This document shows positions 1-63,969 of a stretch of DNA of 64,000 bases, one piece after another. Below the pieces are notes generated by a model. That model saw only the letters and a list, made by a program, of their open reading frames with translations. It made no database searches and had not been told where the DNA came from. The stretch is from assembly GCA_039980135.1 (NCBI GenBank), contig JBDXCV010000002.1, forward strand, positions 62,001 to 126,000. The letters are read 5' to 3'. How positions within the stretch are numbered: position 1 is the first letter of the stretch; every line of letters begins with the position of its first letter. Source of the DNA: Alphaproteobacteria bacterium (GTDB lineage Bacteria; Pseudomonadota; Alphaproteobacteria; UBA6615). Position numbers and translations under genes: made by a program.

Positions 1-836
1 TCGGAATTGACCGTGACCAGCAGGCTCGCGTCGAGCGCTTTCTTGACCGGTTGCTCGGCCATGGACGCAATCCCGCTGAGCCGCAGGTTTGATAGCGGGC
101 ACATGGTCAGCGGTGTCTTATCGCGCGCCAGGCGGGCAACGAGCGCCGGATCGTCGAGCGCGTGATTACCGTGGTCCACCCGCGATACCTTCAGAATATC
201 CAGCGCGTCGGCGACGTATTCGGCGGGGCCTTCCTCACCGGCATGGGCGACGGCGAGGAAGCCTTCGTTGCGCGCGGCCTCATACACCCGGGCGAAGTTC
301 GCCGGCGGGTTTCCGGCCTCGCCGGAATCGAGGCCGACGCCGTGGATATGGTCCTTGTGGCGGCACGCCGAATGAAGCGTGTCGAAGGCCTGCTCCTCGG
401 GCAGGTGGCGCAGGAAGCACATGATCAGCCGCGACGTGATGCCGAGCTCGGTCTGGCCCTGCTCCAGCGCAGAGACGATCCCGCCCAGCACGGTCTCGAA
501 TGCCACGCCCCGGTCCGTATGGCCCTGGGGGTCGAAGAAAATCTCGACATGGGTCACGCCCTGATCGGCGACCTTTTCCAGATAGGCCCAGGTCAGGTCG
601 TGGAAATCGCGGGCCTCGATGAGGACGGACATGCCGGCATAGTAGAGGTCGAGGAAGTCCTGCAGCCCATCGAAGTTATAGGCCGCGCGGATTTCTTCGA
701 CATTGTCGTAGGGCAAACTGACACCATTACGCCGTGCCAGTGCGAGCATCATCTCGGGTTCAAGGGTGCCCTCGATATGTAGGTGCAACTCTGCCTTGGG
801 CAGCTTGTCGATCAGCTTGTCGGTGGTGTCAGCCAT
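1..836 (-). CDS. Adenine deaminase (adenosine deaminase-like family), 3' end cut by window edge
   Basis: Metal-dependent purine deaminase; adenine to hypoxanthine plus ammonia is the likely reaction (purine salvage, cytoplasm). About 278 codons are visible. The N-terminal motif ELHLHIEGTLEPE carries the metal ligands H18 and H20, and the EGTLEPE form is typical of bacterial adenine deaminases rather than E. coli-type adenosine deaminase. Further on are the conserved VAHAGEEGP (His-Ala-Gly-Glu) and RVDHG motifs. The window ends inside the V-N-S-D metal-site motif, so roughly the last 50-60 residues lie outside. ATG start at 834-836 (reverse strand). Substrate choice (adenine or adenosine) is inferred from motif style only. 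Confidence 0.88.
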   Translation of the reverse strand, partial: MADTTDKLIDKLPKAELHLHIEGTLEPEMMLALARRNGVSLPYDNVEEIRAAYNFDGLQDFLDLYYAGMSVLIEARDFHDLTWAYLEKVADQGVTHVEIFFDPQGHTDRGVAFETVLGGIVSALEQGQTELGITSRLIMCFLRHLPEEQAFDTLHSACRHKDHIHGVGLDSGEAGNPPANFARVYEAARNEGFLAVAHAGEEGPAEYVADALDILKVSRVDHGNHALDDPALVARLARDKTPLTMCPLSNLRLSGIASMAEQPVKKALDASLLVTVNS

Positions 837-57699: not shown

Positions 57700-59496
57700 A
57701 TGCATCCCTACCGAACCCATACCTGCGGCGAACTGCGCGACGAGAATGCGGGCGATACCGTCCGCCTGTCGGGCTGGATCCACCGCAAGCGCGACCATGG
57801 CAACCTGCTGTTCGTCGATCTGCGCGACCAGTACGGCATCACCCAGTGCGTGATCGACACATCGAGCCCGATCTTCGAGACCGTCGAGGGCGCGCGGCTG
57901 GAATCCGTGATCTCCGTGACCGGCCCGGTCGTGGCCCGCTCCGAAGAGACCGTCAACGCGACCATCCCGACCGGCTCGGTCGAGGTCGGCATCGACGAGG
58001 TGAATGTCGAGAACGCCGCAGACCAGCTGCCCCTGCAGGTGAATTCCGACGAGGACACGGGCGAGGAAATCCGCCTGCGCTACCGTTACCTGGACCTGCG
58101 CCGCGAGAAGGTGGCGCGCAACATCCTGCTGCGCAACGATGTCATCGCGTCGATCCGCCGCCGCATGATCGAGGCCGACTTCAAGGAATTCCAGACTCCG
58201 ATCCTGACCGCGTCATCGCCCGAGGGCGCGCGCGACTATCTGGTGCCTTCGCGCCTGCACCCGGGCAAGTTCTACGCGTTGCCCCAGGCGCCGCAGCAGT
58301 TCAAGCAGCTGCTGATGGTGGCGGGCTTCGACAAGTATTTCCAGATCGCGCCCTGCTTCCGCGATGAGGACGCGCGGGCCGACCGGTCGCCGGGAGAGTT
58401 CTACCAGCTCGATTTCGAGATGGCCTACGCCACCCAGGATGACGTGTTCAACGCCATCGAGCCGGTGATCGCGGGCGTGTTCGAGGAGTTCGCGGGCTTC
58501 AACCGGGACGCGCCCTGGTCGGTCACCCCGACGCCGTTCCCGCGTATTGCCTATGCGGACTCGATGCTGAAATACGGCAACGACAAGCCCGATCTGCGCA
58601 ACCCCATCGAGATCGCCGACGTGGCCGAGGTGTTCGCCGGCTCGGACTTCGAGATTTTCGCCGGCCTGGTGGAAAAGGGCGGCACCGTGCGCGCCATCCC
58701 CGCGCCGGGCGGCGGTGCGCAGCCGCGCAGCTGGTTCGACAAGCTCAACGACTGGTCGCGCGACGAGGGCGCGCCGGGCCTCGGCTACATCATCCTGGAG
58801 AATGGCGAGGGCAAGGGCCCGATCGCCAAGTTCGTGGCCGGTGAACGCCTCGAGAAGCTCAAGGAACTGGCGGGCCTGAAGGACGGCGACGCGGTGTTCT
58901 TCTCCGCCGGCGACCCGGGCGAGGCCGCCGACCTGGCCGGCAAGGCGCGGACCAGGATCGGCGAGGATCTCGACCTGATCCCGACCGGCCGCTACGACTT
59001 CTGCTGGATCGTCGATTACCCGATGTATGAGAAGGACAAGGACACGGGCAAGATCGAGTTCTCCCACAATCCGTTCTCCATGCCACAGGGCGAGATGGCG
59101 GCGCTCGACGCGGACGACCCGCTCGACGTGCTGGCCTACCAGTATGACATCGTGTGTAACGGTGTGGAGCTATCCTCCGGCGCGATCCGGAACCACCGCC
59201 CCGACATCATGCTCAAGGCCTTCGAGATCGCGGGCTACGACCGCGAGACCGTGGAGCGCGAGTTCGCCGGCATGTTCAACGCCTTCCGCTACGGCGCCCC
59301 GCCCCATGGCGGGTCGGCCCCGGGCATCGACCGCATCGTCATGCTGATCGCCGACGAGCCCAACATCCGCGAGGTCATCGCCTTCCCGATGAACCAACGC
59401 GCCGAGGATTTGATGATGGGCGCGCCCGCCGAGGTGGACGACACGCGCCTGCGCGAGCTGCACCTGAAGAAGGTGCTGCCGAAGGGCGAGAAGTAG
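57700..59496 (+). CDS. aspS: Aspartyl-tRNA synthetase
   Basis: Class II synthetase, 598 residues of bacterial type. OB anticodon domain [23 protein letters not shown], motif 2 F-R-D-E-D-x-R-A-D-R-x-P-x-E-F-Y-Q-L-D, GAD domain, and motif 3 G-x-A-P-G-I-D-R. May be non-discriminating (Asp/Asn) in species using GatCAB; not decidable here. Downstream lies the A+T-rich island. Confidence 0.97.
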
Positions 59497-59645
59497 GCAA
59501 GTACCGTTAGTCTTCCCGCTGCCAGCTTTGGCGGTAAAACTCATTCGATTGATTATCTGAGTCTTTTGGCAATCTTTGGTTGTCAATGTATTCTCACGTC
59601 AGAGACTCAACGAATTTGGTTCGCGTTTGAAAGCTGGGGGGCACC

Positions 59646-61010
59646 GTGACAATTACTGAGGATACCAAGGCGTCTGCAAATCCGACCAAGGCGTTCTTTG
59701 TGCGAATGATTACCCGCGACATTAGTCTTGAAGACTGCATTCTTGATCTAATTGACAACAGTATTGACGGAGCCTGGCGATCCGAAGGAAGCAGGCCAAT
59801 TGGCCTTGCCCTGGACGGCGATCTTTCTGCCTATACGATTGATATTACGGCGTCGCCAACGCAATTCACCATTACAGATAATTGTGGCGGTATGAGCCTA
59901 AATGACGCGGTCGAGTATGCATTTAGCTTTGGGCGTCGGCCTCAAGAGGAAGCTGATGAGTATAGTATCGGTGTATACGGAATCGGAATGAAACGTGCCG
60001 TTTTTAAGTTGGGAACTGACATTCGAATACGCAGTACTTTCGCGGACAATGATGGAACAAGACAATCGTTCGCGGTCCCAATTAGTGTTGAAAAATGGTT
60101 GGAAAGCGACGATCCGCCTTGGGATTTTGATCTTGAGGAGGACGAACAATTAGCCGAGAACGGCGTGAGAATCGATGCCAATATTCTCACCTCCAGCGCG
60201 GCCAACGCATTCTCCAATCCCGCATTTCTTCAGAATTTGAGTAGAACGATCGCGAGGGACTATTCGCTCCACCTCAGCCAAGGGCTATCTATTCTACTGA
60301 ACGGAAAGAAGATAGCTGGTTGGCAGATTGAACTGCTTGCCAGCGAAGAGTATGTGCCCGTTCGTATCTCATATGAAGACAAAGAAAACGACGACGAAGT
60401 GTCGATTGAGATAATTGGAGGCATGTCAGCCCCACCGCCGGAGGATAGTGATCCTGAAGAGGATGAGCGCGGAGATAGAAGGGATGGCTGGTATGTCGTT
60501 TGCAACGGACGGATCGTACTTGCCGCTGACAAAACTGAAGTTTCAGGCTGGGGGTCGGATGATTGGCCACAGTGGCATCGTCAGTATTCGGGCTTTTTGG
60601 GGATCATCCTTTTTTCTGCATCGAATGCGGCAGCATTACCGCTAACCACGACCAAAAGAAGCATCGATAGTTCTTCGGAAGTTTATCGACGATCAAAACC
60701 GCACATGCGGGAAATATCAAAAAGTTGGATTAATTATACTAATCAGAAAAAGCAGTCTCTTGATGAGGCCAAAGCTAAAGAGGCACAGACGACGCCCGTT
60801 TCAATCCGTTCAATTACGGAGAACAAGAAGGTCACTCTGCCCAGTTTCACCGCCCGGCCGGTAGAGCGCGTTGCAAATATCAATTACTCGGTCCCGCTTA
60901 AGGACTTAAAGCTACTAGCGAAAGCGTTTGGCCGAATTAGCATGTCATACAGAGACGTCGGAATAAAATCGTTCGAGTACTCGCTCGATGATTTGGTTGG
61001 AGAGGATTGA
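59646..61010 (+). CDS. GHKL (MORC/MutL-like) ATPase
   Basis: 454 residues, GTG start behind a GGGGGG-rich Shine-Dalgarno. GHKL Bergerat fold: N box L-D-L-I-D37-N38-S-I-D-G, G1 D78-N-C-G-G-M, G2 Y-G-I-G-M-K-R-A (111-118). A second S5-like lobe follows (about 200-350), then an acidic loop (D-P-E-E-D-E-R-G-D) and a Lys/Ser-rich C-terminal segment. No helicase or nuclease domain. MutL/MORC-type ATPases recur in prokaryotic restriction-modification neighbourhoods, which fits the DNA methyltransferase two genes on. Role likely ATP-dependent DNA clamp or sensor (inference). Confidence 0.85.
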   Translation: MTITEDTKASANPTKAFFVRMITRDISLEDCILDLIDNSIDGAWRSEGSRPIGLALDGDLSAYTIDITASPTQFTITDNCGGMSLNDAVEYAFSFGRRPQEEADEYSIGVYGIGMKRAVFKLGTDIRIRSTFADNDGTRQSFAVPISVEKWLESDDPPWDFDLEEDEQLAENGVRIDANILTSSAANAFSNPAFLQNLSRTIARDYSLHLSQGLSILLNGKKIAGWQIELLASEEYVPVRISYEDKENDDEVSIEIIGGMSAPPPEDSDPEEDERGDRRDGWYVVCNGRIVLAADKTEVSGWGSDDWPQWHRQYSGFLGIILFSASNAAALPLTTTKRSIDSSSEVYRRSKPHMREISKSWINYTNQKKQSLDEAKAKEAQTTPVSIRSITENKKVTLPSFTARPVERVANINYSVPLKDLKLLAKAFGRISMSYRDVGIKSFEYSLDDLVGED

Positions 61011-61954
61011 TGGCGTCTTTCGATTCAATCAACTACAGCCTACGGCCAAGTAAAACTATTCAAAGACAACTGGTTTTTGATGGTATTCGAATGCTTAAAA
61101 TTCATTTGAACTTGGATCAACAAGTGTTCGTTGGATTTGGTTCCATCTGGTTCACGGACTTTGTCATGGCGCACAATCAGCTTCTGATTAAGGACATGTA
61201 CTCGATCGAAAGCGACGATATTGGGTTTCGTCGTGCTCTGTTTAATGCACCGTATTCAACGGTGTCTGTGTGCCATGGACATTCTTCGGCTATTTTGCCT
61301 GAACTGAATGAGATACCAGAAATTCGTGGCCGTCCCTGGCTAGTTTGGCTCGATTACGACTATCTTTTTGATGAGTCTGTCCGCGACGATATTCGAACGG
61401 TTATTGAGCGCGCTCCTGAAAATACGATCCTCCTCATAACGTTCAACGGTGTTGAAGGAAAATACGGCGTATCAGCAGATAGGCCCGATCGATTGCGGGA
61501 AATATTTGGTGATTTGGTGCCAGACGACCTTTCGCGACGCGCGTGTAAAGGCGAGAGAATGCAGGAAACGTTGGCAGAATTCGCACTAGGCGCGATGGCA
61601 TCTTTGACGTCGGAGCTATCTCGGCCTGGAGGCTTTACACCGGCATTTCGAGTAATCTATCGGGACACGACTCCGATGGTTACTGTGGGTGGCGTTCTGC
61701 CTGCTCTCGGCGCTGCTGCGATCAGCGACGATTTCGTAGGGAAAGAAGAATGGCCTTGCCTAATTGACGAGCCCATTATTGCGCCACACTTAACTGTTCG
61801 CGAAGCGACAGTCCTTCAGTCGCTGCTGCCAAGTGATAGTAATCTATCACGGGATGCTGTTCGGGAACTGGGCTTCGATCTAGAGCCTGAACAAATACAG
61901 GCATTCCAAAAATATTATAAGCAATATCCAGCATTCGCCCAAATTGTTACTTAG
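61010..61954 (+). CDS. Unknown conflict-system protein, Rossmann-methyltransferase-like
   Basis: 314 residues. ATG overlaps the ATPase stop by one base (TGATG) with GAGG just upstream, so translation is coupled. V-F-V-G-F-G-S-I-W-F-T-D-F (near residue 40), M-Y-S-I-E-S-D (near 66) and W-L-V-W-L-D-Y-D (near 111) match the order of motif I, the acidic end of strand 2, and motif IV of class I methyltransferases, in degenerate form. It reminds me of a putative O-methyltransferase family annotated in prokaryotic conflict systems, but I am not certain. C-terminus (V-R-E-A-T-V-L…L-S-R-D-A-V-R-E-L-G-F) could be a small helical domain. Not a recognisable nuclease. Confidence 0.65.
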   Translation: MASFDSINYSLRPSKTIQRQLVFDGIRMLKIHLNLDQQVFVGFGSIWFTDFVMAHNQLLIKDMYSIESDDIGFRRALFNAPYSTVSVCHGHSSAILPELNEIPEIRGRPWLVWLDYDYLFDESVRDDIRTVIERAPENTILLITFNGVEGKYGVSADRPDRLREIFGDLVPDDLSRRACKGERMQETLAEFALGAMASLTSELSRPGGFTPAFRVIYRDTTPMVTVGGVLPALGAAAISDDFVGKEEWPCLIDEPIIAPHLTVREATVLQSLLPSDSNLSRDAVRELGFDLEPEQIQAFQKYYKQYPAFAQIVT

Positions 61955-62002
61955 TTGCGAACGGATTATTTACTATGCCAATATTGAATTTGGGTTCGGT
62001 AT

Positions 62003-63112
62003 ATGTGCTCATCCCATGAATTGAATAAGAATCCTCGCATTGTCGACCTGTTTTGTGGCGCCGGCGGGTTTTCGTTGGGTGCGCATATGGCAGGGTTTGA
62101 AGTTGCTGCTGCTTATGACATCGATCCCATTCTGACATCGTCGTTCAGGAAGAATTTCGTGTCGACTAACCTGTTGCTTAAGGACATATCTATACTTCGC
62201 GGCGATGAGGTTCGAAAGTCAGCGGGCGGGACCGTAGATGGAATTATTGGCGGGCCTCCGTGCCAAGGATTTAGTGATATTGGTCGACGTCTAACTGACG
62301 ATCCACGGAGAGAGCTTCTTGGGCACTTTTTTCGAGTGGTTAGAGAAGTCAGACCGGCATTTTTTATTATGGAGAATGTACCTGGTCTCCAGTACACGGA
62401 CGCGCGTGGAGTTCTAGAAATTGCGCTGAAACAAGTGGAAGAATTTTACGAAATTTTCGGGCCGAATATTTTAGATGCATCAGATTTTGGCGCGGCTACG
62501 AAGCGTTCTCGCTTGTTCGTGATTGGTATGCACAAGGGCCGAGCTGATCCTATGCAGATGAGGGATATTGTGGAGCACAAAGCTGTGCCTTCCTCAGTTG
62601 AAGCGGCGATCAGCGATCTTCTTCATTCTGTTGAAATTGGTGAGCAGGATGGATTCGATTGGTGGCGAATTGAGAAAAAGGGTAGGCCGACTGACTATGC
62701 GCGACTACTTCGATCAGTTGATAGGGAATTTACGGGACATAGGAAAACATCCCACTCGCAAAAAGTGATTAACCGATTCAACGAGGTTCCTCAGGGCGGG
62801 AAGGACATAGTTGGCCGACATCCTAGATTGGCCTGGAATGGGCTTTGCCCAACGTTGAGGGCAGGAACAGGTGCAGATAGGGGCTCGTATCAATCAGTTC
62901 GCCCGATACATCCTACAGAGGACAGAGTCATAACTGTTAGAGAAGCTGCGCGACTTCAGGGGTTTCCGGATATCCACCTTTTCCATCCAACGATTTGGCA
63001 TTCGTTTAGAATGATTGGAAACAGCGTATCTCCAATAATCGCGAAGGCTATTTTGCAGGCAGTACGATCAAAGTTTGATACTGCAGAAATGCAACTTGTT
63101 GCTGCCGAGTAG
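62003..63112 (+). CDS. C5-cytosine DNA methyltransferase
   Basis: 369 residues with all main motifs: I V-D-L-F-C-G-A-G-G-F-S-L-G, IV G-G-P-P-C87-Q-G-F-S (nucleophile), VI E124-N-V, VIII region K-R-S-R-L-F-V-I-G, target-recognition region (about 180-300), IX R-E-A-A-R-L-Q-G-F-P-D, X G-N-S-V-S-P-I-I-A. Intact, so it is expected to be active; target sequence unknown. Starts 48 nt after the unknown gene. A+T-rich codon use as in its two partners. Confidence 0.95.
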   Translation: MCSSHELNKNPRIVDLFCGAGGFSLGAHMAGFEVAAAYDIDPILTSSFRKNFVSTNLLLKDISILRGDEVRKSAGGTVDGIIGGPPCQGFSDIGRRLTDDPRRELLGHFFRVVREVRPAFFIMENVPGLQYTDARGVLEIALKQVEEFYEIFGPNILDASDFGAATKRSRLFVIGMHKGRADPMQMRDIVEHKAVPSSVEAAISDLLHSVEIGEQDGFDWWRIEKKGRPTDYARLLRSVDREFTGHRKTSHSQKVINRFNEVPQGGKDIVGRHPRLAWNGLCPTLRAGTGADRGSYQSVRPIHPTEDRVITVREAARLQGFPDIHLFHPTIWHSFRMIGNSVSPIIAKAILQAVRSKFDTAEMQLVAAE

Positions 63113-63168
63113 ACTAATTGGCAAAGATATCCTCGGAATTATTTTTCTCGTTTTATGGTCCCTTCCAA

Positions 63169-63969
63169 ATGAACATCACCCTCAACGAAATCGACTTCCG
63201 CTACGAGCTCGACGGGCCGGAAGGCGCGCCGTGGATCGTGTTTTCGAACTCCCTGACCACCGACGTCACCATGTGGGACACGGAAGTGGCGCAGCTTGCT
63301 GATCGCTACCGCATCCTGCGCTACGACACGCGCGGCCACGGCCAGTCCTCGGGCCCGGAAGGGCCCTACAGCTTTGAATTGCTGGTCGGTGACATCATCG
63401 CGCTGATGGATGCGCTCGGTGTGGACAAGGCCCATTATGTGGGTCTGTCGCTCGGCGGCATGGCCGGTCTTGGCATGGCCATAGAGCATGGCGATCGCCT
63501 GCTCAGCCTCGCGGCGTGCGACGCGCGACCTTACGCCGACCCGGAGTGGGCGGCGCCCTGGGTCGATCGCATTGCGCTCGCCCGTGACAAGGGCATGGAG
63601 GCGCTGGTGGAGCCCACCGTCGCGCGCTGGTTCACCGAAGACTTCCAGGCCGAGGCGGCGAACGCGCCGGTGCTCGACCATGTGCGCCGGATGATCCGCG
63701 AGACCTCCGTCGAGGGCTATACCGGCTGCGCGGGGGCGCTCCAGGGTCTCAACTATCTGCCCCGGCTGGGTGAGATTTCCGTGCCGAGCCTGTTCATGAC
63801 CGGCAAGTCCGACGGCAGCACGCCGCCGGCGGCCTCACAGCAGATGCACGCCGCGGTGCCGGGCTCCCAATGCGTGATTCTGGACCCGGCCTCGCACATC
63901 TCGAACCTCGAGAACCCGGCGGCATTCGACGCGGCGCTGTTTGCTCATATCGAGGCGGCGGACGCCTGA
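63169..63969 (+). CDS. pcaD: 3-oxoadipate enol-lactonase-like alpha/beta hydrolase
   Basis: 266 residues. S-N-S-L-T-T-D-V-T-M-W-D oxyanion region, Y-D-T-R-G-H-G-Q-S, nucleophile G-L-S94-L-G-G, acid in G-K-S-D-G-S-T-P-P, His in A-S-H-I-S-N-L-E. PcaD hydrolyses 3-oxoadipate enol-lactone in the beta-ketoadipate pathway. No other pca genes are in the window, so a generic hydrolase is possible. ATG chosen because host-like codon use begins there; an in-frame start at 63118 lies in the A+T-rich island edge. Confidence 0.82.
   Translation: MNITLNEIDFRYELDGPEGAPWIVFSNSLTTDVTMWDTEVAQLADRYRILRYDTRGHGQSSGPEGPYSFELLVGDIIALMDALGVDKAHYVGLSLGGMAGLGMAIEHGDRLLSLAACDARPYADPEWAAPWVDRIALARDKGMEALVEPTVARWFTEDFQAEAANAPVLDHVRRMIRETSVEGYTGCAGALQGLNYLPRLGEISVPSLFMTGKSDGSTPPAASQQMHAAVPGSQCVILDPASHISNLENPAAFDAALFAHIEAADA

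What the first reader, a model, noticed from the sequence alone, without database searches (positions are those of the whole stretch)
61010..61954. Middle gene: degenerate methyltransferase-like protein as possible effector
It is start/stop-coupled to the ATPase, so a stoichiometric partner is likely. Motif spacing suggests a Rossmann methyltransferase fold, yet no catalytic signature of DNA methyltransferases (N/D-P-P-Y/F or P-C) or of PD-(D/E)XK or HNH nucleases is visible.
Basis: inference. Interest (0 to 1): 0.6.

Follow-up and report, generated by a model that had tools for sequence, protein, structure and literature searches.

The report
MORC-type ATPase with methyltransferase-fold partner
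A three-gene mobile DNA cassette pairs a DNA-methylating enzyme with a MORC-like ATPase and a strongly conserved methyltransferase-fold protein of unknown activity, probably a bacterial defence module that works from DNA methylation and, in this genome, without any recognisable nuclease.

Summary
The gene at 61010-61954 is real, intact and overlaps the ATPase stop codon by one base. It is a full-length member of Pfam PF20553 (Methyltransf_35, "putative O-methyltransferase"). A confident AlphaFold model (pLDDT 91.5) is a class I methyltransferase fold whose best PDB match is tRNA methyltransferase Trm1. It is not "degenerate": 15 positions, including the ribose-acid E67 and motif-IV D115, never vary in 50 relatives, although the motif-I acidic residue is missing. 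The upstream ATPase is MORC-like (GHKL+S5); the downstream gene is an intact cytosine-5 DNA methyltransferase. In 48 of 49 extra loci the ATPase directly precedes this gene. The two coevolve (r=0.92), and in 44 a C5 methyltransferase lies nearby, but of several clades, on either side or strand (r about 0.3). In five congeners the site is empty: the insert is exactly these three genes. About half the relatives lack any recognised restriction nuclease; others accompany complete type II R-M, helicase or DISARM loci, and filamentous phages carry the trio. Best reading: an ATPase + SAM-fold second arm attached to C5-methylation defence. Its biochemical act (modify, silence, or regulate) is not shown. 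New variant of a known kind.

The parts
59497..63168 (.). Mobile three-gene insert between aspS (57700-59496) and an alpha/beta hydrolase gene; G+C about 0.45-0.50 against about 0.65 around it
   Evidence: Five congeneric genomes align up to about 59493-59500 and again from about 63166-63169, with only a few to about 20 bp between; G+C
59646..61010 (+). GHKL (HATPase_c_3) + S5 ATPase, MORC/paraMORC type, 454 aa, no nuclease domain recognised
   Evidence: Pfam E 1.3e-11; AF2 pLDDT 86.7; VIA-align best rows MORC3, MORC4, MORC2, Z 22-23, tied with HSP90 at Z 22
59745..59759 (+). ATPase N-box D34-L-I-D-N38 (Asp where MutL/MORC-type GHKL proteins have the catalytic Glu)
   Evidence: D34, D37, N38 invariant in 48 relatives; the Glu comparison is established knowledge
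61008..61012 (+). TGATG stop/start overlap coupling ATPase and middle gene
61010..61954 (+). Middle gene: Methyltransf_35 (PF20553) protein, class I methyltransferase fold, 314 aa
   Evidence: Pfam E 2.8e-85; AF2 pLDDT 91.5, pTM 0.90; Foldseek/VIA best match Trm1, Z 16.5
61043..61066 (+). R12-P13-x-K15-x-x-x-R19 N-terminal basic motif before and at the start of helix 13-33
   Evidence: R12, K15, R19 invariant
61133..61144 (+). Motif I G42-F-G44-S45 after strand 1; motif-I acidic residue absent (Y40 in 49 of 50, F40 here)
61208..61210 (+). E67 at the end of strand 2 (position of the SAM ribose-binding acid)
   Evidence: invariant in 50 sequences; strand 63-67
61346..61360 (+). Motif IV W113-L-D115-Y-D117 at the end of strand 4
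   Evidence: W113 and D115 invariant, D117 47 of 50
61658..61684 (+). Y217-x-D219-x-x-x-M223-x-T225, strand 6/strand 7 turn
   Evidence: Y217, D219, M223 invariant
61796..61915 (+). C-terminal helical part, residues 263-302 (E265 invariant), possibly winged-helix-like
   Evidence: DSSP helices 263-270, 281-286, 293-302; fold not tested alone
62003..63112 (+). C5-cytosine DNA methyltransferase, 369 aa, with intact GGPPCQGFS (62258-62263 = PC) and ENV motifs
   Evidence: Pfam DNA_methylase E 7.9e-58; sequence

Best explanation
The middle gene encodes the partner subunit of a MORC-type GHKL ATPase. The two proteins form one functional unit that serves as the second arm of a C5-cytosine-methylation-based defence cassette. 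Proposed working: the downstream methyltransferase marks the host DNA; the ATPase closes as an ATP-dependent dimeric clamp on nucleic acid; the middle protein uses its conserved SAM-fold pocket to engage the nucleic acid and act on DNA lacking the mark, or in response to failed restriction. Shown here by computation: the folds, the intact conserved pocket, the pair as a coevolving unit, the near-constant but exchangeable C5 methyltransferase, and transfer as exactly three genes. Inferred: physical complex, SAM binding, defence role, and sensing of methylation. Not determined: whether the middle protein transfers methyl groups (to DNA or RNA) or only binds.
For: The ATPase directly precedes the gene in 48 of 49 extra loci, the exception being cut by the contig end, and identity matrices of the pair correlate at r=0.92, against 0.29-0.35 with the C5 methyltransferase. 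A C5 methyltransferase lies within about 6 kb in 44 of 49, in all four side/strand arrangements and from several clades, while only 13 of 40 related genomes have any such gene. Clean empty site with exactly the three genes. Trio as cargo in filamentous phages, pair inside a DISARM locus and beside a PLD/SF2 helicase and a DndD/PbeC-like protein or an SNF2 helicase + NOV_C protein. Invariant pocket residues on a confident methyltransferase-fold model. MORC-like ATPase model. A GHKL ATPase of the paraMORC3 kind with a nuclease tail, VcSduA, is an experimentally shown antiphage protein (PMC12137116); MORC and paraMORC genes were linked to R-M operons by context in PMC2292703.
Against: No experiment supports defence for this family; PADLOC has no model matching the ATPase or the middle protein. 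Many loci also contain a complete type II R-M system (REase_II, HNH or a candidate ORF), so the pair is not simply the missing nuclease. Coevolution of adjacent coupled genes can reflect shared inheritance rather than contact. Locus sampling came from two short motif patterns and favours Proteobacteria.
Confidence: 0.5

Rival explanations
1. The middle protein is an active nucleic-acid methyltransferase (Trm1-like, perhaps guanine-N2 in tRNA or DNA) and the ATPase a loading or quality-control factor; the cassette lays down a second modification rather than attacking DNA.
For: Trm1 is the best structural match and its rows span almost the whole model (3..308, Z 16.5, 15.3, 14.8, 14.7; next 14.1). 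G42/G44, E67 and D115 are conserved. P13/R19, E67/N79 and D115/D117 have the same spacing as P30/R36, D84/N96 and D130/D132 of Aquifex Trm1 (sequences; pairing by eye).
Against: No sequence-level support: hhalign against Trm1 probability 0.1 and no Pfam TRM hit. The DPFG / NPPY-type catalytic motif is absent and the motif-I acid is missing.
Confidence: 0.25
2. The pair is an accessory or regulatory module of ordinary R-M systems: it modulates the C5 methyltransferase or the restriction enzyme and has no effector activity of its own.
For: Many loci have complete type II R-M (REase_II in 7, HNH in at least 6, a candidate ORF309/290 in 7). The C5 methyltransferase varies freely while the pair stays.
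Against: 20 fully flanked loci and the window have no recognised restriction nuclease to regulate, the insert here is only three genes, and the pair also occurs with DISARM.
Confidence: 0.25
3. The middle protein is a decayed methyltransferase kept only as a scaffold.
For: Motif-I acidic residue missing; no known catalytic tetrapeptide.
Against: Pocket residues are invariant across 24-62% identity, which is not expected of a decayed pocket.
Confidence: 0.1

Closest known systems
Pfam PF20553 Methyltransf_35 ('Putative O-methyltransferase')
   Same: Full-length profile match; all 50 gathered relatives match it
   Different: The family name is a prediction and no paper in the library mentions it. 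A catechol-OMT-type metal site is not conserved at strand 5 (position 146: Q/N/S/D), so the O-methyltransferase label is not supported here
Trm1, tRNA guanine-26 N2 methyltransferase (PDB 3axs, 2ejt)
   Same: Best structural match, spanning nearly the whole chain
   Different: No detectable sequence homology; no DPFG motif
Prokaryotic MORC / paraMORC ATPases in R-M operons (Iyer et al. 2008, PMC2292703)
   Same: GHKL + S5 ATPase beside C5 methyltransferase, Vsr, HNH, helicases
   Different: The passages read do not mention a methyltransferase-fold partner fixed next to the ATPase; this ATPase has Asp34 at the catalytic Glu position
VcSduA / paraMORC3-Shedu (PMC12137116)
   Same: GHKL ATPase in phage defence
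   Different: VcSduA carries its own PD-(D/E)xK nuclease; here the ATPase has no recognised nuclease and is paired with a methyltransferase-fold protein
HEF_HK + Response_reg_2 with C5 methylase (PMC8011034)
   Same: GHKL gene coupled to a second gene, next to C5 methylase and Vsr
   Different: Neither HEF_HK nor Response_reg_2 is detected in the window proteins
DISARM
   Same: A PF20553 + ATPase pair sits inside a DISARM locus of Microvirga terrae
   Different: No drmA/B/C genes in this insert

Membership tests
PF20553 Methyltransf_35 | profile match over the curated cut-off, full length | tested here: met
   286.8 bits against cut-off 27, positions 1-308 of 309
Class I SAM-dependent methyltransferase fold | seven-strand Rossmann-like topology with strand 6/7 hairpin | tested here: met
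   AF2 model strands 39-42, 63-67, 85-89, 110-115, 139-146, 210-218, 222-230; PDB matches
Class I SAM-dependent methyltransferase fold | motif I acidic residue before GxG | tested here: not met
   position 40 is Tyr in 49 of 50, Phe here
Class I SAM-dependent methyltransferase fold | SAM binding / methyl transfer | not testable with these tools
   needs purified protein
Trm1 tRNA methyltransferase | sequence homology to PF02005 | tested here: not met
   no hit; hhalign probability 0.1 with a two-sequence Trm1 profile
Trm1 tRNA methyltransferase | Trm1 fold over the whole chain | tested here: inconclusive
   best Z 16.5 over model 3..308, rmsd 4.0 on 224 residues, but other class I methyltransferases reach 14.1
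Catechol-type O-methyltransferase (the Pfam label) | acidic metal ligands after strands 4 and 5 | tested here: not met
   D115/D117 after strand 4 conserved, but position 146 after strand 5 is Q/N/S/D
DNA amino- or C5-methyltransferase (middle gene) | (N/D)PP(Y/F) or PC motif | tested here: not met
   absent from the sequence; no Pfam/PADLOC methylase hit
MORC/paraMORC ATPase | GHKL domain plus S5-type second domain | tested here: met
   HATPase_c_3; MORC3/4/2 ATPase rows Z 22-23 over residues 8-396, tied with HSP90 Z 22
MORC/paraMORC ATPase | membership in one named subfamily (MORC or paraMORC1-5) | not tested
   no reference sequences of the subfamilies were compared
Type II restriction-modification system | C5 methyltransferase present | tested here: met
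Type II restriction-modification system | cognate restriction endonuclease in the cassette | tested here: not met
   insert holds only three genes, none with a nuclease hit
[quoted passage not shown]
   not detected
DISARM | drmA, drmB, drmC core | tested here: not met
   absent from the insert

The most novel reading that the evidence does not exclude
A nuclease-free bacterial silencing device: a MORC-type clamp and a methyltransferase-fold reader entrap or compact DNA that lacks the cassette's own 5-methylcytosine mark, a bacterial counterpart of eukaryotic MORC silencing linked to DNA methylation.
Probability: 0.15. Interest if true: 0.85.

Novelty: new variant of a known kind. Interest (0 to 1): 0.5.

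Why it matters
MORC ATPases are thought to have entered eukaryotes from bacterial methylation-linked conflict systems (PMC2292703), but in the papers found here the nuclease-free bacterial forms have no tested function. This minimal three-gene unit is small, mobile, carried even by filamentous phages, and absent from the defence library used here, so it is a convenient system for asking what a MORC-type ATPase does with methylated or unmethylated DNA. It also shows that a 'lone' cytosine methyltransferase of phage PfAC20, reported as an incomplete system (PMC11878078), is part of a conserved three-gene unit.

Tried and rejected
Nuclease reading of the middle gene (Toprim-like E...DxD spacing, PD-(D/E)XK, HNH): the AF2 model and PDB matches are class I methyltransferases. 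Trm1 as a sequence relative: hhalign and hmmscan gave no support; kept as a fold resemblance only. A search for more Trm1 sequences in the same phylum gave only partial hits, mostly below the cut-off, and was not used. PDB profile search with the family gave nothing convincing. Single-sequence search of viral contigs found no relative; the alignment-based one found six. A ten-sequence alignment was too diverse to scan with. TcmP and PD-lambda-5 literature leads did not bear on the family. Literature searches for PF20553 or Methyltransf_35 found no paper. No named nuclease family is claimed absent on the strength of the fold search alone.

Full report
Observation. The finding is correct as a description. 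The ORF at 61010-61954 is intact and its ATG overlaps the stop codon of the ATPase gene as TGATG. It belongs, full length, to Pfam PF20553 Methyltransf_35 (E 2.8e-85). PADLOC had no match; NCBIfam gave only a weak hit far below its cut-off; PHROGs gave a family of unknown function. The upstream gene is a GHKL ATPase (HATPase_c_3) and the downstream gene a C5-cytosine DNA methyltransferase with its PC and ENV motifs. No nuclease was recognised in the three genes.

The insert. G+C falls from about 0.65 to 0.45-0.50 across the three genes. In five genomes of the same genus, aspS (ending at 59496) is followed almost directly by the hydrolase gene that starts in the window at about 63118; alignment stops at about 59493-59500 and resumes at 63166-63169. 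The three genes therefore arrived as one unit and nothing else came with them. PF20553 is rare: 4 of 385 genomes of the class, 5 of 398 of the phylum, and only this genome among the congeners.

Relatives. A scan of genome contigs and viral contigs gave 47 loci, to which a filamentous phage (PfAC20) and a Microvirga plasmid were added. The ATPase lies immediately upstream in 48 of the 49; the exception is cut by the contig end. A C5 methyltransferase is near the pair in 44 of 49: downstream same strand 16, upstream same strand 13, upstream opposite 9, downstream opposite 6. For comparison, only 13 of 40 related genomes have any PF00145 match at all. Identity matrices correlate at r=0.92 for ATPase and middle protein, but only 0.29 and 0.35 for either with the C5 methyltransferase. 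The pair is one inherited unit and the methyltransferase is exchanged, yet nearly always present. This favours a joint function but does not prove contact.

Other neighbours. Vsr mismatch endonuclease was found in 30 of 53 loci checked; HNH or REase_II-type restriction enzymes or an uncharacterised ORF next to the methyltransferase occur in a sizeable minority, and 20 fully flanked loci have no recognised restriction nuclease. Loci with the second C5-methyltransferase clade (L022, L025-028, L036, L038, L041, L047, L048, L056, L057) have a restriction enzyme or the candidate ORF; the clade that includes the window mostly has none. The pair also sits in a DISARM locus, beside a PLD/SF2 helicase and a DndD/PbeC-like protein (L045), and beside an SNF2 helicase and NOV_C protein (L065). 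So the pair is neither simply the missing nuclease nor tied to one restriction enzyme.

Structure of the middle protein. AlphaFold2 on 50 relatives gave pLDDT 91.5 and pTM 0.90, with the seven strands of a class I methyltransferase, an N-terminal helix, and C-terminal helices at 263-302. Foldseek and VIA-align rank tRNA methyltransferase Trm1 first (Z 16.5; 224 residues, rmsd 4.0, spanning 3..308), with other methyltransferases at 14.1 and below. Sequence comparison with Trm1 gives no support, so Trm1 is the nearest fold, not a shown relative. By eye, P13/R19, E67/N79 and D115/D117 share the spacing of P30/R36, D84/N96 and D130/D132 in Trm1 (sequences); this is a lead only.

Is it degenerate? 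R12, K15, R19, G44, H55, E67, R75, N79, W113, D115, Y217, D219, M223, E265 and P307 are the same in every row that covers them, across 24-62% identity to the query. E67 ends strand 2, where class I enzymes bind the SAM ribose, and D115 ends strand 4, the usual catalytic position (established knowledge of the fold). The acid normally preceding GxG is replaced by Tyr, Phe in this copy. No amino-methyltransferase or C5 motif is present, and the strand-5 metal ligand of catechol-type O-methyltransferases is not conserved. The likeliest reading is a maintained binding or catalytic site of unusual kind, not a decayed enzyme; the Pfam name 'O-methyltransferase' is not supported.

The ATPase. The model (pLDDT 86.7) matches MORC3, MORC4 and MORC2 ATPase modules best by VIA-align (Z 22-23, 16-20% identity), tied with HSP90 (Z 22). 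Sequence profiles also reach HSP90/TRAP1, MORC2 and SMCHD1. ATP-binding motifs are invariant, with Asp34 where MutL/MORC-type proteins carry the catalytic Glu. No nuclease domain was recognised; residues after about 400 were barely tested.

Known context. Iyer et al. (PMC2292703) described MORC and paraMORC GHKL ATPases in R-M neighbourhoods with helicases, C5 methylases and Vsr. VcSduA, a paraMORC3-type ATPase fused to a Shedu nuclease, protects against phage (PMC12137116). The PfAC20 methyltransferase was reported as an incomplete system (PMC11878078); its three genes are this trio. No paper in the library mentions PF20553.

Verdict. The cassette is most likely a C5-methylation-linked defence unit in which a MORC-type ATPase and a methyltransferase-fold partner form a second arm. 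Folds, conservation, linkage, coevolution and transfer as three genes are computed here; complex formation, SAM binding, defence and the biochemical act are inferred. It is a new variant of a known kind.

Noticed in passing
L100 8547-10747 (host genome G000 contig C9 about 188.5-190.7 kb): The host carries a second C5 methyltransferase (564 aa) divergently adjacent to a Vsr gene, unlinked to the insert.
   Followed up: partly
L005 280-3711 (Pseudomonas phage PfAC20), L058, L060, L061: Filamentous (inovirus) phages carry the same trio as cargo; three viral contigs (L058, L060, L061) share further phage genes with PfAC20.
   Followed up: partly
L026 10755-11657, L027 3608-4537, L038 9082-9954, L041, L028, L056, L057, L007: Unknown ORF of about 300 aa next to the C5 methyltransferase, without Pfam or PADLOC hit where tested; candidate restriction enzyme.
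   Followed up: partly
L006 2449-15592 (Microvirga terrae plasmid pR24_2): The ATPase + PF20553 pair lies inside a DISARM locus between an MmeI-like enzyme and drmA.
   Followed up: no
L020 4622-6343, L046 4736-6490, L049 4623-6440: A second, longer GHKL ATPase (about 600 aa) next to the pair; in L049 weakly similar to PADLOC PD-Lambda-5_A, with a TniQ-like gene nearby.
   Followed up: no
window 59745-59759: Invariant Asp34 replaces the catalytic Glu of the GHKL N-box in this ATPase family.
   Followed up: partly
L007 8001-8816 (Sinorhizobium meliloti KH46 pSymA): The PF20553 copy looks truncated or frameshifted at its start.
   Followed up: no
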